DNA from: Bolinopsis microptera
Lineage: Eukaryota > Ctenophora > Tentaculata > Lobata > Bolinopsidae
Reading direction: 5' to 3'
DNA: 50,433 nucleotides
Assembly (NCBI RefSeq): GCF_026151205.1
Contig: NC_087073.1
Coordinates: forward strand, 21,606,837-21,657,269
The notes beneath the pieces are model-generated. The model was not told the origin of the DNA. It ran no database searches and worked only from the letters and a program-made list of their open reading frames with translations. Positions 3,639 to 50,415 of the stretch are shown in pieces. A program made the position numbers and the translations under genes. Each line of letters opens with the position of its first letter. Position 1 is the stretch's first letter.

Positions 3639-6600
3639 ATGGAGCAACTTCAACAACCAAGTCTCACAGCTATTATCATCCAGGTTAGATTAATTTTAGA
3701 CTCAAGTTCAACTGATCTTTTCAATCACCTTCATACAGTAGAGGAAATATTCCGGTCCGAGTTTCCGATTTGTCAAGGTTATTACGCTTTTGTGAGCACC
3801 CAGATAACATTGGACCAACCGACAGAAGTAGCACTTCTGAGTTTCTCTAATGATCACGCCGGTATTGGGTGAGCACATTCATTGATATTGATCACTGTAT
3901 TATTAGAATGATAACTTACCTTCCTCCCCAGCAGCAGCAACAGTGGCAGCTCACCTCTGGGTGAGAGAGTGAGCGGTGATGGCGCTGAGAATCCTGAGGA
4001 CCCTATTCGCATTGAAACTGACTCTAAACCCAGCAAATACCTTTCCCCTATCGCAGAGGTATGAGACTTACTATGTATTGTAGTTATAACATCACTCATT
4101 ACATTACATCACTCATTACATGCCTTTCTTAATTTAGTTTTAAGCAGGTAGTGACCCCCGTCGGCCCCCTTACTCAGGTATTGTAATCGTGCGTAGCTAC
4201 ATCAGTACATCATGTTTGGATGTGTTTCATACACTCTTCCGCTCCATTAACCGATACTGTTAACTTCCAAACCTGCCCCTGAGTAGCTATTCTCCATATG
4301 AAACATAAGACAGAACAGCCTGCTCGCAGCCAATCACAGCACAGTATTTGAACAATCCACCAATGAGAGCCTCTTATTTGGACCAATGTGTACAATACCT
4401 CTATCACACTAGCTCTGGTAACGTATTTTCTGACTGTGTCTGCTGGTTCTGTCTGTATTGTCTAGTAACCCCCGGCTTGTTACTTGTTCTTACTACCAGA
4501 ATATCTTAATTATCTTTGTTTGGTGGTTATGGTTGATTGAGTTGATGAACGCCAACCTGATGAATGTCATTAGCAATGTCAACGTTAGGAAACTTCCGAA
4601 TGTCGCTAAATTTGTACGTTGGGTTTGTAAAACATGCCGCATTCATCATATTACACCTCGTTAAATATCAGTTCTACCAAGTGGTTACTAGTGGTTACTA
4701 GTGGTTACTAGGCTAATAATTCAAATAATAAGAGTCACATCATGATTTCTCTAGTTTTGACTTTTGGTTTACACTCACGAGTCTTAATGTGTTATAAGTA
4801 CGCTAGATCCTTAATAACGGACTGAGTGTCTCCTTAGAATTATACCAGTACAACCCCGATTTACCGCGACCATTTCCTTCCCCCATGCACAATTTAAACT
4901 AACAAAACCCCGATTTACCGCAAACCCCGATTTACCGCGAACCCCGATTTACTGTGGTTGTGTCCTTTCCCCGCGGTAAATCAGGGTTTCACTGTATTGC
5001 GATAGTTAGGGCTGGGATCACATTGGTGCCCGGTACATTTACTACCAGGGTAATTATGAGAACTCCTTATTATTCGTGCGTCATCTTCTGCAAAAACAGA
5101 TTACATATTAGCTTGATAACCGGCTATATACTAGTTAGGACTCGCTCTGCTTGAATTGGGCGACCCAATCTTGAAGACTTGCAATTTCATTAAATTCCCT
5201 CAATTAAGGTCATGCTTAAAAGGTTATGTCGTAAAGGTTATTAAAAGGAACGAGATATTATAATATGATAGACACTTCGTCATTTAAATTTCTCTCATTT
5301 ACCAGAAATACGGGCACCTGTGGAGCTCGACCTCGAAGGATCCCGAACAGAGACAGATGTGTAGAAACTATAAACTAGGTGAGTTCTAGTTCTTAGTTAA
5401 ATCTTATACTATAAACTAGGTCAGTTCTTGTTCTTAGTTAAATCTTATACTATAAACTAGGTGAGTTCTAGTTCTTAGTTAAATCTTATACTATAAACTA
5501 GGTGAGTTCTAGTTCTTAGTTAAATCTTATACTATAAACTAGGTCAGTTCTAGTTCTTAGTTAAATCTTATACTATAATTTAGGTGAGTTCTAGTTCTTA
5601 GTTAAATCTTATACTATAATTTAGGTGAGTTCTAGTTCTTAGTTAAATCTAATATTATAAACTAGGTGAGTTCTAGTTCTTAGTTAAATCTAATATTATA
5701 AACTAGGTGAGTTCTAGTTCTTAGTTAAATCTTATACTATACACTAGGTGAGTTCTAGTTCTTAGTTAAATCTTATACTATAAACTAGGTGAGTTCTAGT
5801 TCTTAGTTAAATCTTATACTATAAACTAGGTGAGTTCTAGTTCTTAGTTAAATCTTATACTATAAACTAGGTGAGTTCTAGTTCTTAGTTAAATCTTATA
5901 CTATAAACTAGGTGAGTTCTAGTTCTTAGTTAAATCTTATACTATAAACTAGGTGAGTTCTAGTTCTTAGTTAAATCTTATACTATAAACTAGGTGAGTT
6001 CTAGTTCTTAGTTAAATCTTATACTATAAACTAGGTGAGTTCTAGTTCTTAGTTAAATCTTATATTATAAACTAGGTGAGTTCTAGTTCTTAGTTAAATC
6101 TTATACTATAAACTAGGTGAGTTCTAGTTCTTAGTTAAATCTTATACTATAAACTAGGTGAGTTCTAGTTCTTAGTTAAATCTTATACTATAAACTAGGT
6201 GAGTTCTAGTTCTTAGTTAAATCTTATACTATAATTCAATAGTATTGTGCCGTGGTACCGTGTGCTGTTGTTAGCGGTACCGTAGTGTGGTACCATGGTG
6301 TGGTACCGTATGTGTGGTACCATGGTGTGGTACCGTAGTGCGGTACCGTATGTGTGGTACTTCCTACGAGATAACAGACTTCTAATATCTATAAATTGAA
6401 AGGTTGCAATAGTTCAAATATATGTGCTGTGTTGGTTGTACCCAAACATGCTACATTGTAATATATGATTAATTGGGGCAGCAACTCTCATCTTAACATT
6501 GAATAGACCAATCACAGCACACTACCTCTAATTTCTATTTGATCTCGCTACCACAGAATAGTACTGTTGCTGCAATACAATACAGCGTAATGCTGTAATA

Positions 6601-9600
6601 CAAGGGGCGTGGTGGGCGTTATACAATTGCAACATTTACTTTATAATGTTGTGCAAGGACGCGTAGTGGTCGGGAGGAGGCCCAGAATAAATACTGCTCG
6701 AGCAGAGAATAGCGGGGGGGGGGGCATTACTATGGGGGGGGGGGGGGGGGAGGGGCATTACTATGGGGGGGGGGGGGAGGGGCATTACTATGGGGAAGGG
6801 GGGAGGGGTATAACTATGGGGAAGGGGGGGGGGGGCATTACTATGGGGAAGGGGGGATTACTATGGGGAAGGGGGAGGGGCATTACTATGGGGAAGGGGG
6901 GGGGGGGGGCATAACTATGGGGAAGGTAAATGACTTGGTTATCTCATTGTTCATATGTATCAGTTCTCAGCAAGTTTTAGCTATGTATGCTAATCTTGAA
7001 TGAACACACCAAACAATACGCTTGAAGCGAGAAGCTGTAAACATTTTCTTGAGAATTCCTGGTCTCGAATAACATTCCATAACTAGGGAATGTACCCGGG
7101 TAGAATTAGGACTGTGCTGTGCAGGAGATTGAAGTTTTAACCGGTCTCATTGCAGGAGTGCACAAGTTCAACAAGCGGCCCTCGAACGGAGTTAAGCACC
7201 TGACGACAGCTGGAGTGGTACGGGACTCACCTCACGACATAGCTGCCTTCCTCCTTAACGGAAAGGGGCTCAGCTTGTCCCAGATCGGCAACTTTATCAC
7301 GGAGCTTAGGAAGCCGCTCTCCATAGCCGTTCTAGAGTGAGTACTAATTCCATAGCCGTTCTAGAGTGAGTACTAATTCCATAGCCGTTCTAGAGTGAGT
7401 ACTAATTCCATAGCCGTTCTAGAGTGAGTACTAATTCCATAGCCGTTCTAGAGTGAGTACTAATTCCATAGCCGTTCTAGAGTGAGTACTAATTCCATAG
7501 CCGTTCTAGAGTGAGTACTAATTCCATAGCCGTTCTAGAGTGAGTACTAATTCCATAGCCGTTCTAGAGTGAGTACTAATTCCATAGCCGTTCTAGAGTG
7601 AGTACTAATTCCATAGCCGTTCTAGAGTGAGTACTAATGTCTAATTCCATAGCCGTTCCAGAGTGAGTACTCATTTCATAGCCGTTCTAGAGTGAGTACT
7701 AATTCCATAGCCGTTCTAGAGTGAGTACTAATTTCATAGCTGTTCTAGAGTGAGTACTAATTCCATAGCCGTTCTAGAGTGAGTACTAATTCCATAGCCG
7801 TTCTAGAGTGAGTACTAATTTCATAGCCGTTCTAGAGTGAGTACTAATTCCATAGCCGTTCTAGAGTGAGTACTAATTCCATAGCCGTTCTAGAGTGAGT
7901 ACTAATTTCATAGCCGTTCTAGAGTGAGTACTAATTTCATAGCTGTTCTAGAGTGAGTACTAATTTCATAGCCGTTCTAGAGTGAGTACTAATTAGTAAT
8001 TTCATAGCCGTTCTAGAGTGAGTACTAATTTCTTTTTGTGTCTGCTTAATTAATGTGTAAAAATGCTTTGACGTTTGAAGTGAGTAAAAGGGATAAAAAG
8101 CTAAACTTGAATTTTTCGGTACTGGTTTTCTGAAAATTGTATTAGTCAATAAAATATTGTCAGCGCGAAAATAAATATATACGAGTTGATGCGTCACCAC
8201 AGTAAAAGTACATTATGCAATAATTCGTGGGCCGGGGGATGTCATCTAAATTAAACTTGCAATTCACTTGTCAGATTAACTGGCTTGCTCTGTAATTTAT
8301 GTTGTCGGTTGTCGGTTGTATCGCATGCGACTATACAAATCTGACATTCTTACTTCGCGAGTAAATAACGATAAAGATCTTCGTCGTTTGATGACTATTT
8401 TAAGCTTGCACTACGTCAATAGGCTCGGATGTGATTGGGAGACAAATTGGTACCTGACAAGTGACAGAGAGTAACTAATGGTTACCAGTGGCTGTCATGT
8501 GGTTGTCATGTGGTTGTCACGTGGTTACCACGTGTTAAACTACTTCACACTTACTTCCACGTGGTCACCAAGTCTATAACTCTAACAGTTCTACTGCCAG
8601 TTCTACTGCCAGTTCTACTGCCAGTTCTAATACCAGTACAGTAGCTTACTAATTACTATGTGACTCACTGAAAACTACTATAAACGTACTTTTCTGGACA
8701 AGTGACACCAAACCAAGTGATTGGAAATGTCTGTGAAGTGAGCAGATCTAGTTGTTGTAGTATAGCGAGAAAGCAGATCTAGCGAGGAATTATTTTGGGA
8801 TTATTACATCAGCAATAAGTTTAAACTCTAGCTAAAGGACACATACTCCAGTACGTGATACATACTGGAGTATGTACATTTAGTTGGGTCAAAGGGGCTA
8901 CGACAGAAGCCTTCTAATGATTGTAAATCTTAACATACTCCACCCATAACTAGATATTATGCAGAAAAGCGAATAACACATACGCATCTCACTTCTAGGC
9001 TTCTTTACTTACATACCACGTACGTAACAGAAATGAGCCTACTGGTCACTGCTGGAGGGATCATTGGTTGTGATCTATATATATATTGGTTGTGATACTT
9101 GTCAAGCCTTTAAAAGGACGCGATTAATTTGTCATGTTTTGCAACTGAGAGAGTTTTAAATTCAACACAGAGTTTTTATCCCTTTACAATGCTTTTATAC
9201 AATCTATTTTTTCTATTTTTCAAGTGTATTTTTTTTTCAGGGAGTTCATGAAACAGATTGACTTTACATCGCTACCTTTCGAGCAAGCTCTGAGACATTT
9301 TATATCAAAACTTAGATTACCGGTAAGCAAATCTTTATCGTCATATTTCTCTTTTAATTAATGTTGGACCTTTTAGATCTATTAATAGATATTGAATCAT
9401 ATGCTGTCATTTGTCATACTACTGACTATTGGGGAATTTAAACTCTGACTATTTGGGAATTTAAACTCTTGTCATACTACTATAATATAAAAGAATAATA
9501 CAAGATAATATAGAAATAATACAGTTCCGTCAGAGGTTCGGGCGATAAAGACTCTAATTATTCCTCGAATAAGGGTTTTAAAGTTGCTGAGTTCAGCTGA

Positions 9601-18702: not shown

Positions 18703-18718
18703 TCCTACCTTAACAGTA

Positions 18719-18768
18719 CTGGTTACTGGTTACTGGTTACTGGTTACTGGTTACTGGTTACTGGTTAG
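18719..18768. repeat. GGTTACT heptamer repeat upstream of the CCDC92-like start
   Basis: Seven consecutive copies of CTGGTTA end about 16 bp beyond the CCDC92-like ATG, in what would be its 5' UTR or promoter. Confidence 0.9.
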
Positions 18769-20250
<1,482 letters not shown>

Positions 20251-24839: not shown

Positions 24840-25190
24840 AAAGGTTTCGTCCACAAATTTCCTAGGATATATAATAAACAAGTTCAACCCTGCATCATGG
24901 GAAGATCACATTGAAGCCCTTAAGCGATCTCTAAATCATTCTACATCCACCTTATGTTAACTTCACTGCTCCCTTCTAATTTGTACATCGACAACTATAT
25001 TATACCTCGTATAATAATAATAATAATACCTCGTTTGGATCTCGCTTACTGTATATCTTTCTGGGGTGGTGCTGCAAAGCAAGTTCTTTGTTTGGAGGAC
25101 TTTGCCGCTTCGATGCGCCGTGCGAACTATCATTCTTGCTTCGTAGATCTACTTCACAGAGCAATGATTTCAAAGGGTTGACATCGTCCA
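24840..25190 (+). mobile_element. Reverse-transcriptase fragment, plus strand
   Basis: Translation in broken frames gives FLGYIINKFNPASWEDHIE, then LDLAYCISFWGGAAKQVL and RRANYHSC, the thumb/connection region that follows the RT domain in Jockey/CR1-type LINEs. It is interrupted by stops and an (ATA)n run. It meets an oppositely oriented RT fragment at about 25190. Confidence 0.65.
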
Positions 25191-26560
25191 TCAAGCTCTT
25201 TGTTTACTGCCCTAAAGACAGAAGTACTGCCGCGCCAATTAACATCAAGTGCAATTTTTGCCACTTTTTTGTATAAAATATCGAAAGAATTAAGTTTGGT
25301 TTTGGCAGCGCTACACCAAATAATATCCATGTAATTAAATTGAGGAACTGCAAGCATAAGAGCGTTTACAATTTTTTTTCTATATTTCAAGTATTTTTTT
25401 GACCTATGTAATGCTCCTACTAGCAATTTTAGATTTCACATAATCAATATGATCCTGAAAGTTTAATAGGTTGTCTATTATCAAACCTAAGTATTTATGT
25501 GATTTGGTTTCTTCTATGTGAATACTGCCATCTTCCGAATCAAGAGGCATCGACAGGCTATCAAGATTAGGACATTTTTCGAATACTATAAATGAGGATT
25601 TTGAAACATTCAGTCTCAGCTTATTAATTCTAAGCCATTCATATACAATCTTCATATCTTCTACTACATTTTCATACAAGCCTCTAGTGATATTATCAAG
25701 ATGTAGTGCACTGTCATCTGCAAATAAATAAGCAGTAGACTGTTTGCAATTACTACTAATATCATTAATGAATAAGCTAAAGAGAATTGGGCCTAATATA
25801 CTACCCTGTGGTACACCTGTGTTGACCGGAAGCAGTGGGCTCACATTACATTGTATTTTGGTGCACTGCTTTCTGCCACCCAGGTAGCTTGAACCACTTG
25901 ATGACAAAGCCATCTACGCCATAGAACTTAAGTTTTTCAACACAACCTTATGGCTAACGGTGTCAAAGGCTTTTTTATGTCTAAAAATACAATTGTAGGT
26001 TTCTTTAATTATTCTTTAGACATAAATATTTTGTCAAATAAATTTAGCATAAGGAAAGTGGTTGAATGGTCTTTCCTGAATCTATACTGATGGTTGGTGA
26101 GCAGTTAATTTGTTTCAACGTACTTGGTGAGCTGTTGGTTAACAAAATATTCTATACATTTCCCAAGTAGGAGAGTATGGATATTGATCGATAATTATTT
26201 GATCATTAGGGTCCCCGTTCTTGAGAATTAGAGTTACTGATGCAATTTTACATGCCATCGGCATAATTTGACTTTTCATGATTAGATTTACAATATGAGC
26301 TCAATCATTTCAGGGATGATATACTTAATAAGCATAATATCATTTATATTATTGATTTATCTGATGGTATACTGAATACATATTCTTTGACCTGTTCAAA
26401 AGTCACCTCAAAACAGAGAGTTTGCACTCTGTGGCATATAATCTAGAAAGTTGTCTGGGTCGTTCTCCTGAATTGACTCTTGTATGATTGTTCCAACTGT
26501 GGCAAATTGCAGGTCAACTCTGTTGACATTTAAGTTTCTTGGAAAGGTGTTTCTCATTTG
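25154..26560 (-). mobile_element. Degraded non-LTR retrotransposon reverse transcriptase
   Basis: On the minus strand, from 26530 downward, broken frames give ACKIASVTLILKNGDPNDQ, then HQYRFRKDHSTTFLML, then VFLDIKK. An intact piece (25913-25404) follows with GVPQGSILGPILFSLFINDI and YLFADDSALH (the FADD catalytic motif), and a further piece (25426-25154) with FNYMDIIWCSAAK. The order is that of a Jockey/CR1-type RT domain. Frameshifts and stops between the pieces make it a relic. It ends about 160 bp before the RBBP5 start. Confidence 0.85.
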
Positions 26561-32220: not shown

Positions 32221-32251
<31 letters not shown>

Positions 32252-34482
32252 TGTTGTATTTAATATGTTCTTAGTATTATGAGGATCGAGATGTTAAATT
32301 TTAAATTTCATCACTCCTAATATTGGCTGCTTCACTCAACCGATTGATTTAGCATAAGATAAAACATATGTTAGCATCTCAACAGTGTTTACTAGCTTCT
32401 TGAACATGTACACTTTTCCAGGCGCTATTTATTAAAGTCAGCCGTGGTAACGCCGCGGAAAAAGTGGCTTCACCAGCATGCCACCAAGAAACGGCACATG
32501 GGCGACATCTACGAGCTGCAACGTCGAGGAACACCAGCCGAGCCACCCCTTCCCTCCTGGATCACCAGCTCAATGCTTCACACCAAAAAGTACCTGCTTC
32601 AAAGCTCGGTCAGTGTTTATATTTTAATCCTCCTCGTGTCCTCTTTTATTATATGTATCGTGGGGGACTCTGTCACAGTGTGATGGTTTAGTAAATGTAG
32701 CGCGCGATGATATTCTTGTGACTAAACTTGTATCTTTCTTCGCGCGAAGATTTACAGATTTCGATCGATCAGTGCAGCTACACTGTACAGTGCACATACG
32801 TTTACATTTAGTCTGATTTGATTTTAAAATCCAATGCTTTACCTCTTCAAACATCAACAAGCACCTCATAGCACTGACCTTATTTCACCCCAGGTGGCAG
32901 GTAAGATAGATGAACAGACAGAAGAAAGACCTCACACTGAACACATACCCCCCATTATGAAAGAAGAAGTGGGGCAGATGAAACGCGACAACTGCCTGTT
33001 ATCGTGTAAACACGTCGCAGACAAAGTAAGCTTTCATCTCTTCGAGTGTGTGGATGATGTGATGATAATTCCTGGCACTCCCCCAAATATTCCGTGCGAT
33101 GATTTATACCTTTTACTGGAGGTTAATTACCTAATCACCTATGTAATACTCCTCGTGTGCAGGAGAGACTGTTACAGCAGCACGACCAGTCAATGCTCCG
33201 TGTCCGGCGACAATCCATCATGAAGCATCCTACACCGAGCGCCTGCAGTATTCTGTTACAGCAGCAGAGTTGTGAATATTCCAAAAAACTTCAAACTGTG
33301 TCGTATGACGTGAACAATGAACAGTTGCTTCTGGCTATGGGAGAGAAGGTAATGTACACACTTACCTCGCGTTGCGGCAAAGAGCTGCTAGGTGGCTGTG
33401 GACTAAACTTTTAGGTGGCAGACCTTTGTTGCTGGGGTATCCGTCAATATATCGGAATCCCTCTTTTGTCAGACTTTAGCCAAAATTTCGTTTAATGGTT
33501 TTTGCGTTTATTTTTTCAGGGAAGTTTAGATTTTTAGTCTGATTGAAACATGATACCACCAGTGGCAAGACCTCCAGGTTCAGCTTACTATGTTTCTCCT
33601 GATTACTGTCAGATCAGCAAAAGTATAATAACCTGATAAAATGTTCAGGTCTTGAAGACGTTTACAACCTTAGCAGAAAAGCTCCATCGGCGTCACCAAC
33701 AAGAAGCTGACACACAATACGCCACTCAGCGTTTTAGTTGGGTCAACAATATACACAAATACGGTCTCTACGATATGCCCATATTAGGTTAGTTGGGTTA
33801 ACTAATACGGTCTCTACGATATGCCCATATTAGGTTAGTTGGATTAACCAATACGGTCTTAACGATATGCCCATATTAGGTTAGTTTGGTTAACTAATAC
33901 GGTCTTAACGATATGCCCATATTAGGTTAGTTGGGTGAACTAATACGGTCTTAACAATATGCCCATATTAGGTTAGTTGGGTTAACTAATACGGTCTCTA
34001 CGATATGCCCATATTAGGTTAGTTGGGTTAACTAATACGGTCTCTACGATATGCCCATATTAGGTTAGTTGATCCGGGATAATTGTCCAATTATCGTAAA
34101 CCATTGCATCGTCCATATTCCATACTCTATAAGCTATTAGACTGTAAAGGTTCTGCGAGTGAAGTAAATGTACATTGTCTCTAGACGCCATGAAGCTCTT
34201 TTATCTCTTAAAGTGCTTTAAAATTCGAGTTCTTTCCTGTTTTGGATCTGTTCGTTCATCGAAAATTTGATCGTTCGTTGAAAATATTTCCATCATATCA
34301 TCAAAGCTTGTAAAAAGTAACTTTTAAAGTTTACCCAATATAATTAGGTGGTTCTGAATGTGCCATATTTGACAGGTAACCTAGACCTGTGGGTGGAAAG
34401 GGTGATAGTGACCAAGTTAAAACCTCAAGTTGAATACTACGACGAGTACGATCCTTCAGATAGTGACGAATCTAACAGATAA
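28676..34482 (+). CDS. ANKRD12-like: ANKRD11/12-like ankyrin-repeat protein
   Basis: Exons: 28664(ATG 28676)-28846, 28958-29078, 29398-29540, 29910-30095, 31517-31613, 31746-32190, 32422-32608, 32894-33025, 33163-33348, 33649-33787, 34376-34482. GT-AG junctions keep one frame of about 637 residues. The N-terminus has GLTERQQIALAMKLS, a motif that precedes the ankyrin repeats in ANKRD11/12. Then come about four ankyrin repeats (about 58-180): HGESPLQIAAIKGDLKQVKL, GWSPLHEAACKGYLDVCK, ETPLHDAAFNGHPK, LLLQNGANPL. A Pro/Glu/Lys-rich linker follows, then a charged C-terminal region rich in Gln, His and Arg. Vertebrate ANKRD11/12 are chromatin co-regulators of over 2,000 residues; here the middle is far shorter. 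Start alternatives: the conserved frame is open to the acceptor at 28663, so an upstream coding exon is possible. AATAAA is at 34735-34740. Confidence 0.85.
30451..30784 (-). CDS. Possible minus-strand coding exon inside ANKRD-like intron 4
   Basis: A frame on the minus strand runs from an acceptor-like CTGCCAG (30785-30791) to a TGA at 30450-30452, about 110 residues. It begins Lys/Glu-rich (FKTKESAEEKKDKIKDKN) and later reads CCKFVDILQNPGTFMQSLEK. It has no early ATG, so it would have to be an internal or last exon. I do not recognise it, and no partner exon was found. It may be chance or a relic. Confidence 0.25.
32222..32251 (+). repeat. Poly-G tract of about 29 bases in ANKRD-like intron 6
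   Basis: An almost pure G run begins about 30 nt after the exon 6 donor (32191). On the sense strand it would give a strong G-quadruplex next to a 5' splice site. Its length is probably polymorphic and error-prone in sequencing. Confidence 0.9.
33735..34071 (+). repeat. 46-bp donor-spanning tandem array (ANKRD-like intron 9)
   Basis: Seven copies, counting the exon end, of a unit holding the last bases of exon 9 (TACGATATGCCCATATTAG), its donor GTTAGT, and TGGGTTAACTAATACGGTCT. The exon copy has AGTTGGGTCAACAATATACACAAATACGG where later units have the shorter AGTTGGGTTAACTAATACGG, so the array grew from a shortened derivative. Exon 9 ends at 33787. The period is not a multiple of 3. Confidence 0.93.
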
Positions 34483-35100: not shown

Positions 35101-38100
35101 ATGTACAAAGTTGATATAATGTCTTGCGTGTCTGACCCCTTGCTGATCGAGGAGGACGTCTTCAACTTGTGGCTGGCGGGACTTTCAGGTATTTATATTT
35201 TCTAAAATCTTCCGCTAAGTTAAAATGAAAAACTTAAATTTTTGGCATTGTATCATTATTCGTTAATTCACGCTATTACATTATTTCCCCGCAGTTGATA
35301 AAGCAGTGGACTACAGATACCAGAAAGACTCGTCCTGCTCCTCCTTCGACCGGACCATAGTAACCTTGGATACGGAGGACCAATACCAAACCTTCTCTCT
35401 CTTGGAGCCACTTCTCAGGAAACCTCCAGCGTTAGCTTCATCTCCTGTGGTCAACATGCCTTTCATCACCGATACTCTTCTGCAACAGTGGGTCAGCTTG
35501 TGTTTTAAACCGTCTTTAGTGATTTATATATCTCACCTTTAAAATTGCTATTCAGAATGTTGACACCTGTTGTGTAACAGTTTGAGTTATTGAATTGTGC
35601 TCCTCAATTTTATGAAGACTTGCTACCCGTGTATAATGTACATTATATAATATGTTTGATGATGATATGCTAGATAGTATGCTATATATTAGATATGTTA
35701 TTGTTATTGGTAGGTATTACTCTCTAGATAGTAGATATGTTAGTGTTATTGGTAGGTATTACTCTCTAGATAGTAGATATGTTAGTGTTATTGGTAGGTA
35801 TTACTCTCTAGATAGTAGATATGTTAGTGTTATTGGTAGGTATTACTCTCTAGATAGTAGATATGTTAGTGTTATTGGTAGGTATTACTCTCTAGATAGT
35901 AGATATGTTAGTGTTATTGGTAGGTATTACTCTCTAGATAGTAGATATGTTAGTGTTATTGGTAGGTATTACTCTCTAGATAGTAGATATGTTAGTGTTA
36001 TTGGTAGGTATTACTCTCTAGATAGTAGATATGTTAGTGTTATTGGTAGGTATTACTCTCTAGATAGTAGATATGTTAGTGTTATTGGTAGGTATTACTC
36101 TCTAGATAGTAGATATGTTAGTGTTATTGGTAGGTATTACTCTCTAGATAGTAGATATGTTAGTGTTATTGGTAGGTATTACTCTCTAGATAGTAGATAT
36201 GTTAGTGTTATTGGTAGGTATTACTCTCTAGATAGTAGATATGTTAGTGTTATTGGTAGGTATTACTCTCTAGATAGTAGATATGTTAGTGTTATTGGTA
36301 GGTATTACTCTCTAGATAGTAGATATGTTAGTGTTATTGGTAGGTATTACTCTCTAGATAGTAGATATGTTAGTGTTATTGGTAGGTATTACTCTCTAGA
36401 TGCTGAAGTTGCCCGGGAGTTGGTGGGTAGAGGACAGAAGATGACCGCCAAGCTACGTAAGGATCTAGACACAATCTCTGATAAAACTGGAATACCGCTG
36501 AAGAGCTGTCTAAGGCAATATGATAACATTAAACGTATTTATAAGGTACCTTTGATGATGTAAACTTGTTCTATGATTACATAGTAAATGTGACTAAAAT
36601 AATTTAAATTGCGATAAAATGTGTAGAACTTCATTTTCTCCTATATCTCCAGTTTGGTCACATGGTCACATGTTTGGTCACATGTTTGGTCACATGTTTG
36701 GTCACATGGTCACATGCCCCCCCCCCCCCCTCAGGAGGTAGATGAGAAGGATGGGAAGGTATCTCAGAACATACAGCGTTACTACGGTCTCAACCCCACC
36801 CTGTGCCAACAGTACGCGGCTATTATATACGTGTTGGATAACAGGATAGACGTTGCTCCCAGGAAGTAAGATCCCCCTTCTTACATATTATATTGAGATT
36901 TGTGAGATCAGTGTAGTCGGAGGTTATATAAATTAGACGTGAGACTAATTAAGTTGAACTATTTCCACACTTACAGTGAACTCTAATTTTACAGGATCCC
37001 CAATCTGACGTATCCCGCTCTAGTGAAGTGTGTAGTTGTTCTCATGTCGGTAAGTGTTGGGGGAGGGGGGGGGGGGTTACGTCATCGTGACGTCATCGTG
37101 ACGTATCCCGCTCTAGTGAAGTGTGTAGTTGTTCTCATGTCGGTAAGTGATGGGGGAGGGGGGGGGGGGGGGTACGTCATCGTGACGTCATCGTGACGTA
37201 TCCCGCTCTAGTGAAGTGTGTAGTTGTTCTCATGTCAGTAAGTGATGACTGATGGGGGAGGGGGAAGTAACTGGACCTTCTTCATATCACTTTTACAGTT
37301 GGGGCTTTTTAACCCGACCATGTTCTGTTATCTGTAGCCATGACTCATTCTAGCGATCTAAACTTTGTACGCAACTTAATTCTTAATTATTGACTAATTA
37401 AGTAATGTTTATTATACAGGAGTGGTGTAGAATGTCCGAGTAATGTTTATTATACAGGAGTGGTGTAGAATGTCCGAGGAAAGTAATGTTTATTATACAG
37501 GAGTGGTGTAGAATGTCCGAGGGAGCCTCAGACATGGACATAGACCGGACCTTCCTCAAGGAACTACATAGTCTGAAAGACAGGCTCTCAGATTCTATGT
37601 TGGTTGGAATGGTTAACCACGGCGCTGAAGCTTTCAAAAACAGTCCAGAGTTCCCTAAGAACTTCGGTAAATATTATTTGTTATCAGTGATATGTCAGTT
37701 GGGTGTGGTGGTTACATTATATGTGTGTTATGCAACTCATAATCACTCATTAACCTCATATACTCCTTCATAAATTAACCCTGCCAATTGCCTGTACTCT
37801 TTATCCTGCCTTCTCCTCAAATTGTTACTTACTCAGCTGTACAGGGAACATGTTGCCCGTAACTTCAACTTGTTTCAATATATGCTCACGCATCTTTTAT
37901 ACTGCAACATGTTCAACTGAATTGTATTGTTGTATCCTTGGAGCAAGAGAATGTGCACAATGCACTCTCCTGAGGTATCTCATAATACATATCAATATAT
38001 TTTGTATAATATATTTACCTTTGTTCGTCCAAACTTTTACTTTCCACTGAACCGGCAAGTAGTAGGTAGTTTAATTGCAGCTTTACTTAGATCGTTCGTA

Positions 38101-40964: not shown

Positions 40965-41671
40965 ACTGCTGAAATAATTTTGTATAGTGATTATTAGAAG
41001 ATTTTTGATCAGTGATTATTAGAAGCGTTTAAATCGATTTTTAGACATGTTAAATGGTTGTAATTAATCAATTTTCATCAGATTTCATAACTTTTATTGA
41101 AGGATCAATACTTTTTAAATCTTAGAATTTTTAAATTTGATATAATAATAGAAATTTTAATAATTTTATTGATTATATAAGATTTATTTTATCGTTCAGT
41201 AATCCAGAATTATTATACTTTTCAGAGCCAGTTACTGCTTCAATTTCTAAATATTCTATTTTTTAACCGTTTAAGATATTGGAATAATTTATTACTATCA
41301 GAATAGTCAATCAACTAAATATTTTTATACAATTTACACTATGTAGACTGCTTAGAACGGCCGATAGCTGGCATGTATTTATAAATACTATTAAACTTAT
41401 ATTAATTTATCTTAATGTAATGTTTTTTCTAATGCGTTCGAATTAACTTGAGAATCTCTGCTAGAAATATGACGAATGGTAGATGTTTACCTCCCAATAT
41501 CAGTTTTATGTTTCAGATTCCTCTCCAGATCCCCTGTTATTGTAAACTGAACGTTTAAACAACTATTTAGTCTACATACCACACATTGCTAACCTCTCCT
41601 CCTGTGTAGTAGTATGACAGAGCACGAGGTCATGTGATATGCCAGGTATAGCATGTAGCGGGGGATGATTC
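40965..41671. other. A+T-rich intergenic stretch before TTC7
   Basis: Very A+T-rich 3' flank of the transferrin-like gene, then the TTC7 5' region. GTTAGTCAG-like splice sites make a non-coding first exon possible. No gene seen. Confidence 0.45.
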
Positions 41672-44600
41672 ATGTCGGGGAAGGCCTCACTTCGGATAGT
41701 AGAGTTGCTAGAAAGAGCTCGTATTGAAGGGGATTGGACTCATGTTAGTCAGGTAAGACAAACAAAGACACCGCAGAAAACCCATATATGGCAGAATTAG
41801 TTCCAATATAGTGAGTTTGAGAGTGCTCATTCTGAATTGAAGAGAATTCAAGCTTACACTTTACAGGCAACCTCGCTGTATGGCCATTGATTTCCCACCA
41901 TTTAAGAGAGCTTGTTCCCCATATATAACATAAGAATTATTATAAATATTTGAATTAGTCATAAATGTAAATATAATTACTATAAATATGAATCACATGT
42001 AAAATGTAAGACCTGGCTATGTTTAGTACGCGGAACAGTTGCCGAGAGAGTACTCGGTGCTGAAGTTTGTAAGTCTGGGGGAATGTCTGTTGGAGGGACA
42101 GCAGAACGGCAAGATCAGTTACAACTCATTACACCTCGCTAAGGACTACATTAACAAGGTAATTATTTAATTGATTAAGTAAATATTATTTATTAGAGTT
42201 ACGTAAGTTAATTGTGTGGCGTTACTTTTAACCTTGTGCTTTAAGAGAGACGGGACAGGATTGTAATCACTAATTGTAGATTATTAGATTTGAACAACCA
42301 CTTGTAGTTAAGTAGTTTATATCCAATATTCGATTGTCAAATTTTGTGTAAATTACGGGTCAATTGTCACTTCTGCTCAATTGAGACTGTTTTGAGAGAT
42401 ATTGAAATACGTTTAGGAGGGTAAAAATGTTCCCAGGGGGCTTCACCCCCGCGCCGCGCTGCATCCACCCAAAGATTTTGAGCTGGAGCCATGCCTGAAC
42501 CACTGGCCGGGATAATGGTATCATTTTCATAAAGCATTCCTAATTGCTTTACTTCTGGGATGATCCAGGAGCTAAGTGAATATTACCTCGCAGTTTCTAC
42601 ATGACCAACTCTAGCGGATATTTATTGAAGTGTTGTGGTTTTTTTATTAATGGCATCGATAGTTGTTCTCCCTTCATTACCACGGTTGAGTCTCAGATTT
42701 GATTGCGTTGAACCGTTCTTTAGCTTGTAGCTGCATACTTACATATTGTATGACTTACTAGCGTTACAGGCCCTTTTGAATCTTTTTAGTTACTCATGTA
42801 ACTTAATCGCGTGAAAATAGCGTTGATGCTTGAAGTTGTTACTTGGGCTTTTTTTAGCAATATTTCTGTGGCTACATATGTTTGTATTTCCAGATATCTT
42901 TGTATTCCTAGATATCTTTGTATTCCCAGATAATATAATAATAATAATAACTAGAAATTTATACATCGCTTTATAGCCAAAAAGAACTCAAAATCCAAAG
43001 ATTCACTTCAAGCCATCTAAAGCGACTCATGAACATGTACATAAGAACTTAGAATTTTATGAAGTATGGTTTGTATGAGAAAGATATTATATGATACTTA
43101 TAAGAACACTTTTTCAAAGAGATGAGTCTTTAGTCTCTTTTTAAACACGAAAATATCGGTCAATGTTCTCAATTGATAAGGAAGCTGATTCCATACGGAG
43201 GGTCCGCAGTAACTAAAACCTCTCTCAGTTTTACTATAATTTGAGACAGGAGGAACATTTAGAAGGAAATATTCTTGTTCAGTTCGTAGCACACGTACAG
43301 GCTGACTCTTGATGTCGATGCATTTGGTGATATAGTCTGGAGCTATGTTGTTGACGCATTTGAACACTGTTAGAGCAATCTTATAGTCTATTCGCTGTCT
43401 AATTGGAAGAAAATGGGCCTTTTTCAGGAATGGAGTGACACTGTCCCATTTTTTTAAAAGCTTTTCTACCAAGTTACAAGAATCGTACACAGGAATTTTG
43501 TACCTTCTTGAGTTTCTTTAATGGGAAAATCAGGTAAACCATAGAGAAGTTCATTGCAATAGTCTAGTTTTGAAAAGATCAAACAGTGAATGAGCTGTCT
43601 TTTTAGGTCATAGTTAAGCTTTGAGCCTATAACTCGAAGGTTCCTCAAATGGATGTTGCAACAACTGCAACTGATTAATGAGTGATTATTGAATTTACTT
43701 GATCTTCAAATGTAAGGAATTGATCAAAGAGGACACCTAAACTTTTTACTGTGTGGGATGCATCCACAGGGTCAGCTGCATTGTCAAGTTGTATTGAATC
43801 GACTGGACATGAAGAGTAACTGTTCTTGGTCTGTACTACAAGCGCTTCTGTTTTGTTTTGGTTTAATTTGAGTTTATTTTGGGTCATCCAGCTCTTAATT
43901 TCTTGAAAACAATGTGTTATTCTCTCTTCGATTGTTGACAGATCTCGAAATAGTGGGTTAAACTCGATGTAAAGTTGGGTGTCATCTGCGTACATGTGGA
44001 TGTTAAATCCGTGTCTCTTTGCAATATGATTAAGCTGCTCCTTTGTGTACAGTATAAACAGTATTGGACCTAGAATTGAACCTTGCGGGATTCCAATTCT
44101 AAGGAAGCATCTCTTTGTATTCCTAGATATCTGTGTATTTCCAGATATCTTTGTATTCCTAGATATCTGTGTATTTCCAGATATCTTTGTATTCCTAGAT
44201 ATCTTAAATGTAGTCCTAGATATCTTTGTATTTCCAGATATCGTTGTATTTCCAGATATCTTTCTATTCCTAGATATATTTGTATTTCCTGATATCTTTG
44301 TATTTCCAGATATCTTTGTATTCCTAGATATCTTTGTATTTCCACGTATCTTTGTATTGCCAGATATCTTTGTATTCCTAGATAACTTTGTATTGGGAAA
44401 GTGTGTTAACAGTGGAAATATCCTGCACTGATTAGCGAACATTTTCATAAAATGTAGCATGATTACAAGACCAGTCGTGGTGGCATAGTACATATTAGGA
44501 GCTAAAACAGGGTACACAGAAAGAGAGTGGTGCGTGAAGTGTAATAATATAGTCTCACCTTGAAGTTCATGAACTTTATTTAAACGGTTGTGCCACTACC

Positions 44601-47600
44601 GCATTGTACAATGTCTGGGAAGAGCCGTGTTTTTATAAGTATCAAATATAGCTTCACCTTCCTGCTCTGTTCGTTCCTGCCCCCGAATGGCATAATACTC
44701 CTTCATAATTAATTATTATTATTATTAATCAACTATATACAGCAAACACAAGATAATAGGAAATAAATCCTAAAATCGAGTGGCCGAGTAGTCTCGACTC
44801 ACCCATAGCTTCTCCATAAACGTCTATCATGAGCTTTGTACACTAAATCGTTGAAATTACTTAAACTAAATCTTTTATTTACAATCACAATAATAATTAT
44901 AATACTCCTTCATAATACTCCTTCATAATACTCCTTCATAATACTCGCTTCAATGTAGCTCTACTTCAATAAGACAGGTATTGCCATTATTCTCTGTCAG
45001 AGATTCGTAGTTCTCATTCTTACCCCAGATTATAAATGTAGCCGAGAGTTAATGTCGGTCACGTGGCATCTACTGATAACATGAGAATACTTGAGTACTT
45101 CCTCTGTTTTTCTTGTTCCCGGTCCATCAAGCAGCAGGTCTGGTTGATATCATATCTTGCTTTCTTTCTTTACTCGTCACTTAAATAGATTGCTCTCCAA
45201 TTTAGATTGATTAAACTTCTGACATACCATGCTTAATATTAAAAGTGTTGTAGCTACCCTAACTAGTAGCTATCCCCCTATTATTAGCAATAATATTATG
45301 CAGAATTTATTCTACATGGTTCCCATTATTTATACTGTACTAGCAGGAACCCGTCTAACCCTAAAGTGGTGTCAAGACTCGAGAGACTAAAATAATTATT
45401 ACCTATTTAATTCGCGTTTTTGACACCACTTGAGAGTCCAAATTTTGGGCACTAAAATTATTATTCCTTGGCCAATTTTTTATTTTTTCATGCTGATTTG
45501 AAGGCCATTAAAGCATTTGACCCAGTCAAAAAAGTTTCAGTTGTATATGTTTTACGGTTTTTGCGGAAAGTCGCGTTAAAGTTGATGCCGTGGTGTCAGT
45601 AAAATGGCACGGATATATACACATATATATATCGTCTCGCTTTATATATAGTAAGATTGTGATGAAAACAGTTCCAATCTAACCTCTAACCATAACTAGT
45701 TACACCACAAGTAACCAAAACTAGAACGCTAACACAACATGGTAACACCACGTGACCATGGTAACACCACGTGACCATGGTAACACCACGTGACCATGGT
45801 AACACCACGTGACCATGGTAACAACACGTGACCATGGTAACACCACGTGACCATGGTAACACCACGTGACCATGGTAACACCACGTGACCATGGTAACAC
45901 CACGTGACCATGGTAACACCACGTGACCATGGTAACACCACGTGACCATGGTAACACCACGTGATCATGGTAACACCACTTGATTGCAGGCGCTGAACAC
46001 TAAGAACGACCGTGAGGGCCAGTACTACAAGGAGGCGATGCTCCTCCAAGCCAAGACTTGTTACATCCAGGCTAAGTTCCAGGAATGTCTTGACATACTC
46101 GACAAGGTAAGAACTTGTTTGCCAGACTCCGTGAAATACTCCGTAATGGTCCTGTCAAATAGTGTAATTAGTATAGGACGTTTCGGCCCTGTCTCACTTG
46201 TCTCGAGTGTTTTGCAAGTTTGGGATGTTTCTTATCCTTCGATGTATTCAGTGACTGGACGTTTAAAATCTAAATATTTTGAGTCCGACTTTTTTAAACA
46301 CGCCCTTTTTATAAGGTTGATATGGAGAGTTTGAGAAAGGATGTGCTGACTTTCAACGCTTCCCGAGCTCTGGCTGATGCCTACGTTTATAAGGGAATGG
46401 CTATGGAGTATTTGAAATTTGTGTCAAACTCAGAGGAGGTGAGTTATAAAAGTTAAGAACCGCTCCCACCCCACCCCACCCCCACCCCCACCCCCACCCC
46501 TACCCCCACCCCCACCCCCACCCCCACCCCCACCCCCACCCCACCCCAACCCCCATCCCCACCCCCACCCCCACCCCCGACCCCACCACACTCCAAAACA
46601 CAGACCACACTATAAGATCCCTACACTCCGGGAGTGTAGTCAGACAGTACCACTCTCTGTTAGTCTGTATGTCCCTGTATGTCTGACTAATACCCTGTCA
46701 GGACACAGATATAGAGAGTATAGTGGAGTGTTACGAGACAGCTGGAGACCTGGGCTTAGAGCTCCTTAACAGCATCAGTAGGAGCACACTCAACCTCACT
46801 CTGTCTGGAGTGTTGGAGATCGCTCTTCTCAGATCATTCCTCCTGCAAATGTCACATGGAATGGTATGAACCACTTCACTGCAGATCCTTATATGTATTA
46901 TTAATATATAATATGGTCAGATTCATTATTTATATTATATCTAACTTTGTTGAATGGTAGTGTATGTTTTATCATACTATTGATAGTTCCCTCTCCTGTT
47001 AGGTAGAGAAAGGGTTGCATAGACTAAGAAGAATACTACAGACCTCTGATATGCCCGGTTCTGACAACCTCAGACTCACCTTATCTCTCACTCTCGGTAA
47101 AACTTGTTGTTACTGTGGGTTTAATCTGAAGCTTTGTCTTCTTTTTGTCATGTTGTGCCCCCCCCCCCCCCCCCTAACATGTTGACATAAAGTTGCCACC
47201 TTGATTTTCACATCCTCCTCTGCCCAGGTCAAGTGTTGCTACAAGGACTGCCTGACAACCAGTGGTCTCCACTAGTACACAGAGACACTGTTTCAGACAC
47301 ACTTACTAAACGGGGTCGCAACACCCCTACTCTTAAGAAATACGAGACTGTGTTCTGTCCTTGTAACAAAGTAGAGGAGGCGTTGCTATCATTACTTATA
47401 GGACAGGTTGGTTCTCTTTTCAAAATCAAATCGAGAAACTCCGGGTATCTAACACTTAGCAGCCCCTAAATTCTAAAAGCAGTCCCTAAAAGCATTCCCT
47501 AAAAGCAGCCCCTATAAAAGCAGCCCCTAAATTCTAAAAGCAGCCCCTAAAAGCAGCCCCTAAAAGCAGCCCCTAAAAGCAGCCCCTAAAAGCGGCCCCT

Positions 47601-50415
47601 AAAAGCAGCCCCTAACCTGTTACCCGGTACCAGGTGCTGCTGTACAAAGAGGGTTGTGTCAGTGTGCACCAGGAGGACGAAGTGGTTTACAAACAAGCAA
47701 ACAAACAAGCCCACACCCTACTCAACCTTCTCGTCTCCCTTCTCGCTAAATACTCCCAGCATCGGCCGCTAGCAGACGTCATTGAGAAATTCCTTAAGTA
47801 CAGTCACGATGTAAGTCGTTATCCCTATCTTTAAAAGTTTTAATACCCAAACCATAAATATTAAATACAATTCTGATAGTACCACGTGACCAGAATAAAG
47901 CCAATCAGAGCCCATGAATTGTTCCACGTGACACTAAAAACCCCACCCCTCAGGACGAGCACATCTGCAAGCAGTTCGGCTTGTCCCTAATCTCCTCTGA
48001 GCAGTTTGTCCGGGGTGCAGCTGTTCTGCAGAAATGCCATGATAGAAATGTGGACGTCTCTATTGCTCTAGTCTTAACTCAGGTAAGAAATGCCATGATA
48101 GAAATGTGGACGTCTCTATCGCTCTAGTCTTAACTCAGGTAAGAAATGCCATGATAGAAATGTGGACGTCTCTATTGCTCTAGTCTTAACTCAGGTAAGA
48201 AATGCCATGATAGAAATGTGGACGTCTCTATTGCTCTAGTCTTAACTCAGGTAAGAAATGCCATGATAGAAATGTGGACGTCTCTATTGCTCTAGTCTTA
48301 ACTCAGGTAAGAAATGCCATGATAGAAATGTGGACGTCTCTATTGCTCTAGTCTTAACTCAGGTAAGAAATGCCATGATAGAAATGTGGACGTCTCTATT
48401 GCTCTAGTCTTAACTCAGTTAAGAAATGCCATGATAGAAATGTGGACGTCTCTATCGCTCTAGTCTTAACTCAGGTAAGAAATGCCATGATAGAAATGTG
48501 GACGTCTCTATTGCTCTAGTCTTAACTCAGGTAAGAAATGCCATGATAGAAATGTGGACGTCTCTATTGCTCTAGTCTTAACTCAGGTAAGAAATGCCAT
48601 GATAGAAATGTGGACGTCTCTAATGCTCTAGTCTTAACTTAGGTAAGATAAGAGTGCCATGATAGAAATGTGGACGTCTCTAATGCTCTAGTCTTAACTT
48701 AGGTAAGATAAGAGTGCCATGATAGAAATGTGGACGTCTCTAATGCTCTAGTCTTAACTTAGGTAAGATAAGAGTGCCATGATAGAAATGTGGACGTATC
48801 TATTGCTCTAGTCTTAACTCAGGTAAGAAATGCCATGATAGAAATGTGGACGTCTCTATTGCTCTAGTCTTAACTCAGGTAAGAAATGCCATGATAGAAA
48901 TGTGGACGTCTCTATTGCTCTAGTCTTAACTCAGGTAAGAAATGCCATGATAGAAATGTGGACGTCTCTATTGCTCTAGTCTTAACTCAGGTAAGAAATG
49001 CCATGATAGAAATGTGGACGTCTCTATTGCTCTAGTCTTAACTCAGGTAAGAAATGCCATGATAGAAATGTGGACGTCTCTATTGCTCTAGTCTTAACTC
49101 AGGTAAGAAATGCCATGATAGAAATGTGGACGTCTCTATTGCTCTAGTCTTAACTCAGTTAAGAAATGCCATGATAGAAATGTGGACGTCTCTATTGCTC
49201 TAGTCTTAACTCAGGTAAGAAATGCCATGATAGAAATGTGGACGTCTCTATTGCTCTAGTCTTAACTCAGGTAAGAAATGCCATGATAGAAATGTGGACG
49301 TCTCTATTGCTCTAGTCTTAACTCAGGTAAGAAATGCCATGATAGAAATGTTGACGTCTCTATTGCTCTAGTCTTAACTCAGGTAAGAAATGCCATGATA
49401 GAAATGTGGACGTCTCTATTGCTTTAGTCTTAACTCAGGTAAGATACGAGTGCCATGATAGAAATGTGGACGTCTCTATTGTTCTAGTCTTAACTAAGGT
49501 AAGATAAGAGTGCCATGATAGAAATGTGGACGTCTCTATTGCTTTAGTCTTAACTCAGGTAAGATACGAGTGCCATGATAGAAATGTGGACGTCTCTATT
49601 GTTCTAGTCTTAACTAAGGTAAGATAAGAGTGCCATGATAGAAATGTGGACGTATCTATTGCTCTAGTCTTAACTTAGGTAAGATACGAGTGCCATGATA
49701 GAAATGTGGACGTCTCTATTGCTCGTCTTAACTCAGATAAATAAGATGTGCCGCGTCCGGGAACTAATTGTGGGTTATAACTTATTTACTTATAATCATC
49801 AGTACAATGTTTTAGATTTGTTAAGCACTCTGTAGCCCGGGAAAAATTATTATTCTATATTTTGAATGTTCTAATTATACACTCATAGATTTTTCAATCA
49901 TAAATTTCGAAAATTATCTTTAAATCATTGCTTACCAACATTTAAAACATAACAATTTCTAATCTTTCCACGTGCTCAGACGTACGTGAGACACCTGCAA
50001 CGTCACGCGGACGCTATAAAGATATGTGACGAATGTATGCCTCTAGCAGAGGCCCCCCATGAGAGGAGTAGGGTGTATCTTTACAGAGGGGTCGCCGAGG
50101 CTGCTCTCTGTCGATCTTCTAGGTACCTCACTTTTTACACTGTATAGTCTTCCTCACTTAGTTGTTTTTAAAGATGAAAGATATTTTACCGTAGCCTGAC
50201 TATGAAAGTATGAAAGGTATAAATTGTAAAACAATTTATTATTTACGCGGTAATTATATAAATTTACCCAGATTACGTGAAGATCAGAACTTATACAATA
50301 AGAGGTCGATAGAGAGTTTCCAGAAGTCATATTCCTTGGACCCGAACTGTTCGCAAACTTGGTACCACTTAGCTTTACGACTTGCTAGTGTTGGCGAAAT
50401 AAAAAAGGCGTTCAG
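41672..50415 (+). CDS. TTC7: TTC7, tetratricopeptide-repeat scaffold of the PI4KA complex (3' end outside window)
   Basis: Exons: 41672-41752, 42027-42158, 45990-46106, 46316-46438, 46702-46863, 47003-47096, 47228-47406, 47634-47810, 47954-48082, 49980-50122, 50272-50415. GT-AG junctions keep one frame; 493 residues are seen of about 850 in vertebrates. TTC7 with hyccin (FAM126) and EFR3 brings PI4-kinase III-alpha to the plasma membrane. Matches: IVELLERARIEGDW at the N-terminus, KEAMLLQAKTCYIQAKFQEC (first helical repeats), ECYETAGDLGLELL, TVFCPCNKVEEALLSLLIGQ (vertebrate NIFCPQENTEEALLLLLISE), and SIESFQKSYSLDPNCSQTWY with HLALRLASVGEIKKAF in the last exon (vertebrate LTFQRAHSLSPTDHQAAFYLALQLA). 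The 3.8-kb intron 2 holds a LINE and a Helitron; intron 9 holds a 1.7-kb donor array. The ATG at 41672 is the first in a good context and gives the conserved N-terminus. Confidence 0.93.
42885..42934. repeat. Left remnant of an 18-bp minisatellite split by a LINE
   Basis: Three copies of TATTTCCAGATATCTTTG and TATTCCTAGATATCTTTG variants. The same repeat resumes at 44113-44395, on the far side of the LINE fragment, so the two are probably one array interrupted by the insertion. Confidence 0.8.
42935..44112 (-). mobile_element. 5'-truncated non-LTR retrotransposon inside TTC7 intron 2
   Basis: Minus-strand frames encode GIPQGSILGPILFILYT, then MYADDTQLYIEF (YADD catalytic motif) and LKLNQNKTEAL, then KRQLIHCLIFSKLDYCNELL, then RIDYKIALTVFKCVNNIAP and GPSVWNQLP. 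This is the order of the RT and C-terminal parts of CR1/Rex/Jockey-like elements. A frameshift near 43470 and a stop near 43675 break the frame. The 3' end carries a (TTA)n tail (42935-42955 on the plus strand as AATAATAATA). The 5' end is truncated in the RT domain. It lies between two halves of an 18-bp minisatellite, its apparent target. Confidence 0.88.
44113..44397. repeat. 18-bp minisatellite, right half
   Basis: About 16 copies of an 18-bp unit alternating TTTCCAGATATCTTTGTA and TTCCTAGATATCTTTGTA. Because the unit is 18 bp, all frames stay open, which gives an artificial fusion of repeat peptide to the RT fragment on the minus strand and long repeat frames on the plus strand. It continues the array at 42885-42934. 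Confidence 0.92.
44398..45339. other. TTC7 intron 2, remaining sequence
   Basis: A+T-rich intron sequence with a short AATACTCCTTCAT repeat (44694-44712 and 44900-44945). No exon was recognised here. Confidence 0.45.
45340..45656 (-). mobile_element. Non-autonomous Helitron, copy 2 (inverted)
   Basis: Read on the minus strand it starts TCTTACTATATATAAAGCGA and ends CGGGTTCCTGCTAG, flanked by A and T as expected for a Helitron. It matches copy 1 (22439-22756) over its whole length with scattered substitutions and small indels, so the two inserted at separate times or have since diverged. It lies inside TTC7 intron 2. Confidence 0.87.
45738..45988 (+). repeat. 19-bp array with 12 CACGTG boxes at the TTC7 exon 3 acceptor
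   Basis: About 13 copies of CATGGTAACACCACGTGAC run to within 10 bp of the acceptor TTGATTGCAG. Each unit contains two palindromes, CCATGG and CACGTG (the canonical E-box). The last unit is changed to CACTTGATTGCAG, which supplies the acceptor, so the splice site seems to have arisen from, or been cut into, the repeat. Confidence 0.93.
46463..46588. repeat. (CCCCCA)n tract in TTC7 intron 4
   Basis: About 20 units of CCCCCA with some CCCCA, starting about 25 nt after the exon 4 donor. The complementary strand (TGGGGG)n resembles G-quadruplex- or telomere-like DNA, but the length and position fit an intronic microsatellite. Confidence 0.92.
47158..47175. repeat. Poly-C run in TTC7 intron 6
   Basis: Seventeen C in a row, about 50 bp before the exon 7 acceptor. 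Its length is probably unstable. Confidence 0.9.
47464..47616 (+). repeat. 13-bp AGCAGCCCCTAAA array near the TTC7 exon 8 acceptor
   Basis: About 12 copies of AAAGCAGCCCCT(A), some shortened or with ATTCT inserted, fill most of intron 7 and end about 20 bp before the acceptor GGTACCAG. The units supply CTAA sequences that could serve as branch points. Confidence 0.9.
48031..49738 (+). repeat. 56-bp donor-spanning tandem array, about 30 copies (TTC7 intron 9)
   Basis: The unit is the last 52 bases of TTC7 exon 9 (from GAAATGCCATGATAGAAATG to GTCTTAACTCAG) plus GTAA. The first copy is coding (exon ends 48082); about 29 more follow. Units near 48640-48800 and 49440-49700 are 60 bp because GTAAGATAAGAGTGCC replaces GTAAGAAATGCC, so variants have spread in blocks. 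Two copies (about 48418 and 49158) have CAGTTAAG in place of CAGGTAAG, which destroys the donor. If the first donor is skipped, a TAG follows in frame within one unit. Confidence 0.97.

What the first reader, a model, noticed from the sequence alone, without database searches (positions are those of the whole stretch)
5366..49738. Recurrent tandem arrays that duplicate splice sites together with adjoining exon sequence
Seven independent arrays in four unrelated genes (5366-6234, 7320-8030, 33735-34071, 35691-36400, 37007-37262, 37401-37521, 48031-49738) have units that begin or end inside an exon and carry its donor (five arrays) or acceptor (two arrays). Units differ in sequence and length (29, 41, 38-43, 42, 46, about 94, 56 bp), so this is not one dispersed repeat. 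About 105 splice-site copies occur in 7 of about 40 introns. Chance minisatellites would rarely cover a 2-bp landmark this often. It suggests a process that starts amplification at exon-intron borders, for example R-loop or spliced-RNA-linked strand slippage, or selection for redundant splice sites. I know of no described system of this kind.
Basis: partly seen in the sequence, partly recalled or inferred. Interest (0 to 1): 0.93.

Follow-up and report, generated by a model that had tools for sequence, protein, structure and literature searches.

The report
Tandem repeats spanning comb-jelly splice junctions
In a comb-jelly genome, short pieces of DNA that cross the border between exon and intron, mostly at the start of the intron, have been copied in tandem many times; the same kind of structure was described in lancelets as "mirages", and here it seems to lean towards strong splice donor sites.

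Summary
All seven arrays exist, 102 unit copies keep their splice site, and a gene finder run on array-collapsed DNA puts a junction inside all seven (at the claimed site in six). Protein homology supports exon-proximal joining in most. One "acceptor" array (FIBP, 35682) may instead be coding.

"No described system" is wrong: minisatellites spanning exon-intron borders are known from amphioxus as "mirages". This genome is a luminous ctenophore, probably Bolinopsis microptera, so the kind occurs in a second, distant phylum.

Chance is less remote than claimed: random placement puts 2.4 of 22 window arrays on a junction (7 seen), and in a 280-kb sample taken blind there is no clear excess (donors 5 vs 3.7, acceptors 2 vs 3.7). 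Pooled donors are twofold enriched (p 0.02), acceptors not; amplified donors are mostly strong (GTRAGT 7/8 vs 6/33). One donor word is in tandem far more often than its reversal genome-wide; a second donor word is inconclusive, and the acceptor words disagree.

Best reading: ordinary short tandem duplication and expansion, tolerated where the first-transcribed strong donor still defines the exon. A donor-directed amplification process is not excluded.

The parts
5306..6234 (+). Sec7-gene exon ending ...CRNYKL(G) (donor GT at 5379) and its donor array, 41 bp x21.2; unit = 12 bp exon + 29 bp intron
   Evidence: TRF; gene model; no gap at the junction against ARNO, IQSEC2 match covers query 4-134
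7156..8030 (+). Sec7 exon (7156-7336, donor GT at 7337) and its donor array, 29 bp x24.0; unit = 17 bp exon + 12 bp intron
   Evidence: Pfam Sec7 E 4.3e-53 over residues 1-154; ARNO alignment across the junction
33735..34071 (+). Donor array of an unidentified gene, 46 bp x6.8, donor ATTAG|GTTAGT first at 33788
   Evidence: predicted donor; no Pfam hit, so gene-model support only
35682..36401 (+). FIBP array at the start of exon 3, 42 bp x17.1, three candidate AG acceptors per unit; open in frame through all copies, so either an acceptor mirage or a coding repeat
   Evidence: (308-aa ORF 35637-36563); FIBP profile match, which cannot tell the three acceptors apart
36995..37262 (+). FIBP exon 36995-37049 and its donor array (donor GT at 37050), 95 bp x2.6
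   Evidence: FIBP profile match 9-329 in one stretch
37400..37522 (+). FIBP acceptor array, 38-43 bp x3.0; the last acceptor (exon starts 37501) gives the FIBP reading
47954..49740 (+). TTC7 exon (47954-48082, donor GT at 48083) and its donor array, 56 bp x30.0; unit = 51 bp exon + 5 bp intron (GTAAG)
   Evidence: TTC7_N Pfam hit upstream, weak TTC7B alignment across the junction; the corrected gene model uses another GT in the unit

Best explanation
These are 'mirage'-type minisatellites. A 30-95 bp stretch that happens to straddle an exon-intron border is duplicated in tandem and then expands by unequal exchange or slippage. The copies become intron and the mRNA is unchanged, because the exon-proximal donor, the first to be transcribed, still defines the exon. 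Duplications spanning an acceptor are less well tolerated, since array copies of the acceptor are transcribed before the true one; this would explain a lean towards donors, and towards strong GTRAGT donors that commit quickly. Shown: the arrays, the junctions, exon-proximal joining by homology for 7 of the 10 donor arrays, the donor lean (modest) and the donor strength. Inferred: the mutational route and the splicing-tolerance filter.
For: Spliced proteins without array copies match across the junction for 7 of 10 donor arrays: Sec7 two, FIBP, TTC7 (weak), TRRAP, POLR3A two (Pfam); in the TRRAP and POLR3A alignments a one-residue gap sits at or near the junction, where I had left out the split codon. 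Not across: 33758, POLR3A 32366 and the DUF4139 gene (no match for the first, domain matches beginning after the junction for the other two). Of the 10 periods 8 are not multiples of 3. A plain two-copy duplication with 20 bp of exon end and the donor is seen in POLR3A. In TRRAP copies 3-8 alternate two unit variants, as expected of growth in blocks (by eye). Donors 10 vs 5.0 expected (p 0.023), acceptors 4 vs 4.9; after inspection 10 to 2 (p 0.04). GTRAGT in 7 of 8 amplified donors of five homology-supported genes vs 6 of 33 other donors of those genes (p 0.0005). Acceptor word CTTTTCAGG: pairs 75 vs 69 for the reversed word although singles are 3982 vs 2106. In amphioxus, published RT-PCR suggests that mirages do not disturb regular splicing (PMC3087553, passage).
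Against: Tolerance alone predicts donors at no more than the rate of other non-coding DNA, yet pooled donors are twofold above random non-exonic placement and AAGGTAAGT is in tandem far more often than its reversal. Junction arrays have more copies (11 of 42 arrays with 2.5 or more copies span a junction vs 1 of 51 with fewer, p 0.0009), which tolerance does not predict. Against the lean: the acceptor word TTTTACAG has 1112 tandem pairs vs 220 for its reversal (many of the 100 listed are isolated pairs, singles not counted), and in the blind sample donors and acceptors are each near expectation. A weight-matrix score did not separate amplified from other donors (p 0.15). Two identical strong donors in vitro often favour the downstream one (recalled). 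No RNA data.
Confidence: 0.57

Rival explanations
1. Donor-directed amplification: strong donors are mutational hot spots, for example through U1/transcription-linked R-loops or splicing-coupled breaks, so tandem arrays are born there more often than elsewhere.
For: AAGGTAAGT tandem pairs 632 vs 4 for the reversed word although singles are 4018 vs 3288; the first 100 listed pairs form 7 clusters in about 48 Mb (3 multi-copy arrays, 4 single pairs) vs 4 control pairs in all 265 Mb (p 0.0004). Donor strength effect and more copies per junction array.
Against: In the blind sample donors are only 5 vs 3.7 expected. A second donor word, CAGGTGAGT, has 6 clusters in about 55 Mb vs 14 control pairs genome-wide, not significant (p 0.12). 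The word-found clusters were not shown to be real donors. An acceptor word, TTTTACAG, also exceeds its reversal in pairs (1112 vs 220).
Confidence: 0.2
2. Chance plus choice of window: a minisatellite-rich genome with short introns puts some arrays on splice sites, and the reader picked a window where this happened often.
For: About 11% of window arrays would fall on a junction at random; sample 7 of 71 vs 7.4 expected.
Against: Donor lean (10 vs 2 after inspection, p 0.04), strength effect, one donor word.
Confidence: 0.13
3. Selection for redundant or multiple U1-binding donor sites keeps and expands the arrays.
For: Strong donors and higher copy numbers at junction arrays; 102 unit copies keep their site.
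Against: Weak: a few copies have lost it (two in the TTC7 array read CAGTTAAG and the last reads CAGATAAA), and homogenisation alone would keep the rest. Use of a later copy would usually shift the frame (8 of 10 periods not multiples of 3).
Confidence: 0.07
4. Assembly artefact.
For: Long tandem arrays are a known assembly risk; no reads could be examined here.
Against: If the species is right, the assembly rests on PacBio CLR or HiFi and Hi-C data (PMC10232365, passages); copies carry distinct variants; a two-copy case exists.
Confidence: 0.02

Closest known systems
Amphioxus "mirages" (Adh3, globin BflGb6/BflGb9, TnC, PGBD5)
   Same: Minisatellite-like tandem duplications spanning exon-intron borders, at donors or acceptors, units 10-160 bp, in unrelated genes, with regular splicing kept (PMC3087553, PMC3902484; passages read)
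   Different: Here a ctenophore; up to 30 copies in the window; several arrays per gene (FIBP three, POLR3A three); a lean to donors and to strong donors, which the passages that I read do not report
Intron gain by tandem duplication of AG/GT proto-splice sites (Rogers model, cited in PMC3087553)
   Same: Tandem duplication carrying splice signals
   Different: In the gene models here the introns with donor arrays go on past the array to an acceptor, so the arrays lengthen existing introns; no new intron was shown
Introner elements (recalled)
   Same: Many copies of splice-site-bearing sequence in one genome
   Different: Introners are one dispersed family inserted at many sites; these units are unrelated from array to array

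Membership tests
mirage minisatellites | tandem units that span an exon-intron border of a real gene | tested here: met
   three of the ten donor arrays lack a protein match across the junction
mirage minisatellites | unit sequence and length differ from locus to locus | tested here: met
mirage minisatellites | regular splicing is kept (exon-proximal site used) | tested here: inconclusive
   homology supports it; no RNA data were available
mirage minisatellites | copy-number instability between haplotypes or somatically | not testable with these tools
   one assembly only, no reads
introner elements | one sequence family at many introns | tested here: not met
   array 5367-6234 has a single match in the genome (the only array searched this way); the units of the seven arrays are unrelated
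coding tandem repeats | period a multiple of 3, open frame, inside an exon | tested here: inconclusive
   possible for FIBP 35682; of the 10 donor arrays, 8 periods are not multiples of 3

The most novel reading that the evidence does not exclude
Strong 5' splice sites act as birthplaces of minisatellites in ctenophores: a transcription- or U1-coupled process duplicates the DNA around the donor, so that intron starts are turned into arrays of decoy donors far more often than acceptors or other non-coding DNA.
Probability: 0.2. Interest if true: 0.85.

Novelty: new member of a known kind. Interest (0 to 1): 0.5.

Why it matters
In the papers that I could search, mirages were reported from amphioxus only. 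Finding them in several genes of a ctenophore shows that splice-junction minisatellites arise in at least two distant animal lineages. Some introns here hold 20 or more near-identical donors while homology suggests that the protein is read normally, a natural experiment on how the spliceosome chooses between equal 5' splice sites, and on how minisatellites lengthen introns. The possible donor lean and strong-donor bias are directly testable with existing annotation and long reads.

Tried and rejected
A first gene-finder test on all splice sites gave no excess in the sample. A hexamer ranking of array units put GTAAGT 11th and 9th in the two sets of all arrays and 42nd and 53rd in the two sets with 2.5 or more copies; CACGTG and GTCACG words lead. 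Motif counts on units were mixed: in the sample GTAAGT 7 of 72 vs 1.8 in genomic segments (0 of 300 trials as high) but vs 3.7 in shuffled units (22 of 300); most other motifs were at expectation. The coding-likeness of unit halves of 9 word-found clusters was uninformative, and two of the nine gave an empty exon side through a script slip. Microhomology at array edges could not be read from TRF edges. A COX1 search found no mitochondrial contig. A PDB search with FIBP found nothing of use.

Calls of mine withdrawn: C1 31906 looked like a donor array by its GTAAGT but lies inside an intron just before an acceptor. C4 31300 lies in what looks like an inverted repeat (by eye). The acceptor calls C4 37896 and C6 14848 looked like gene-finder noise. 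The "curated" rows and copy-number medians contain 31906 and 31300, so I quote its automatic rows; by coincidence the automatic and the corrected donor counts are both 10 (automatic has 31300, corrected has C1 19196). The label of the last line is wrong; its hand-typed table is 11/31 and 1/50. The collapse step had a bug for array 48030, mended; the gene-finder parameters are those trained.

Rows dropped before the strength count: predicted donors not in homology-matched parts of the models, namely exons 1-3 of the Sec7 model, exon 1 and exons 15-20 of the POLR3A model, exons 1-7 and 12-13 of the TRRAP model, exons 8-11 of the FIBP model and exon 1 of the TTC7 model; for the DUF4139 gene exons 8-11 (one of these is GTRAGT). 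The 33 were counted by eye, plus one exon.

Full report
What it is in. The window lies at C2:21606837-21657269 of a 264.65-Mb, 232-contig genome. A recalled ctenophore photoprotein (berovin) has 61 matches there, 50 of them full-length at 85-90% identity. Nine contigs whose length was seen are 16.3-26.2 Mb, and matches fall on contigs up to C13. This is a luminous ctenophore; size fits Bolinopsis microptera (13 chromosome-scale scaffolds, about 254 Mb by k-mers; PMC10232365, passages). The species name is inferred.

Observation. All seven arrays are present and 102 copies keep their site. A gene finder trained on 330 kb of this genome (window plus 280 kb) and run after collapsing arrays calls a junction inside all seven, in six at the claimed site. 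For 48030 the corrected run takes a GTATCT inside the unit, the earlier uncollapsed run the claimed CAG|GTAAG. Joining exons at the exon-proximal site gives a Sec7 match with no gap at two junctions (Pfam E 4.3e-53), a FIBP profile match over three arrays (E 3.1e-70) and a weak TTC7B alignment (E 4.5e-6). Array 33758 has gene-model support only. Array 35682 may be coding, because its 42-bp unit is open through all copies.

The same in other genes. In the sample, donor arrays occur in POLR3A (C1 block 19196-19537, 32366-32708 and 37842-37913), TRRAP (C4 35448-35974) and a DUF4139 gene (C3 8986-9281). POLR3A 37842 is a simple two-copy case. POLR3A 32366 starts at the donor GT and carries almost no exon.

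Is it more than chance? Random placement, not wholly inside exons, of the 93 arrays (period 20 or more) gives 5.0 donor and 4.9 acceptor overlaps; observed automatically are 10 and 4 (donor p 0.023, acceptors not different). Two acceptor calls in the sample looked spurious, leaving 10 to 2 (p 0.04). Window alone: donors 5 vs 1.2 (p 0.006), acceptors 2 vs 1.2. Sample alone: donors 5 vs 3.7, acceptors 2 vs 3.7, neither significant. Of the arrays with 2.5 or more copies 11 of 42 span a junction, of those with fewer 1 of 51 (p 0.0009).

Genome-wide words. AAGGTAAGT occurs 4018 times, its reversal 3288; tandem pairs 20-50 bases apart number 632 vs 4. Many pairs come from few arrays: the first 100 listed places form 7 clusters in about 48 Mb (3 multi-copy arrays, 4 single pairs); against 4 control pairs in 265 Mb this is p 0.0004. 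CAGGTAAG pairs: 1298 vs 38, with nearly all listed places in one large array. CAGGTGAGT: singles 1908 vs 1364, pairs 383 vs 14; 6 clusters in about 55 Mb vs 14 control pairs, not significant. Acceptor word CTTTTCAGG: singles 3982 vs 2106, pairs 75 vs 69; the full list holds two arrays with a period above 20, two short-period clusters and three isolated pairs. Acceptor word TTTTACAG: pairs 1112 vs 220; the 100 listed hold four clear arrays and many isolated pairs; singles not counted. This last result goes against a donor-only effect. Whether word-found clusters are real splice sites was not shown.

Donor strength. GTRAGT is present in 7 of 8 amplified donors and in 6 of 33 other donors of five homology-supported genes (p 0.0005; with the DUF4139 gene 7 of 9 vs 6 of 39, p 0.0006; dropped rows are listed under tried and rejected). 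Over all ten donor arrays it is 7 of 10, against 29 of 242 predicted donors outside arrays. A weight-matrix score did not separate the groups (p 0.15).

Mechanism. The evidence fits ordinary short tandem duplication with later expansion, filtered by splicing: a donor array leaves the first-transcribed donor in place, an acceptor array puts decoys before the true acceptor. The filter explains a lean and the strength effect, but not a rate above that of other non-coding DNA, nor higher copy numbers; those leave room for donor-directed amplification. A few later copies have lost the site, a weak sign against selection for redundancy.

Known or new. Amphioxus mirages are the same kind (PMC3087553, PMC3902484; passages). 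My searches in the held library (listings, with passages of PMC12221973 and PMC8527503) showed no report in ctenophores; the library lacks most subscription papers, and the original Adh3 paper was not read.

Noticed in passing
G000 C1, C2, C3, C5, C9, C10, C13: 50 full-length photoprotein matches (61 in all), many in tandem series with equal scores spaced about 0.94-1.03 kb, for example C5:17012652-17026413 and C13:11082373-11094352.
   Followed up: no
window 720-1310: Clustered 10-bp repeats (CGTCATCTAG, CGCTAGATGA, ATAGCGCTAG) in opposite orientations, suggesting a palindromic structure.
   Followed up: no
window 25154-25913 and 43098-44595, minus strand: Reverse-transcriptase-like ORF fragments; the second runs into an 18/54-bp tandem array with an open frame. 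Named by eye, not searched.
   Followed up: no
L004-L005 (about C1:3023700-3030300): A cysteine-rich repeat-protein gene appears to lie inside an intron of POLR3A on the same strand, like the nested intronic genes reported for Hormiphora (PMC8527503, passages).
   Followed up: no
window and sample: CACGTG and GTCACG are the most over-represented hexamers in tandem units of all arrays (11 vs 1.65 and 10 vs 1.72 expected).
   Followed up: partly
G000 C3:5823835-5828349 (listing cut there): A 46-bp array of at least 4.5 kb whose unit reads like an exon end before CAG|GTGAGT (by eye); coding context not read.
   Followed up: no
G000 C8:17989344-17990270 and C9:16559819-16561639: Arrays with CTTTTCAGG and periods of 51 and 39/45 bp, all multiples of 3 and open in one frame by eye: possible coding repeats or in-frame acceptor arrays.
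   Followed up: no
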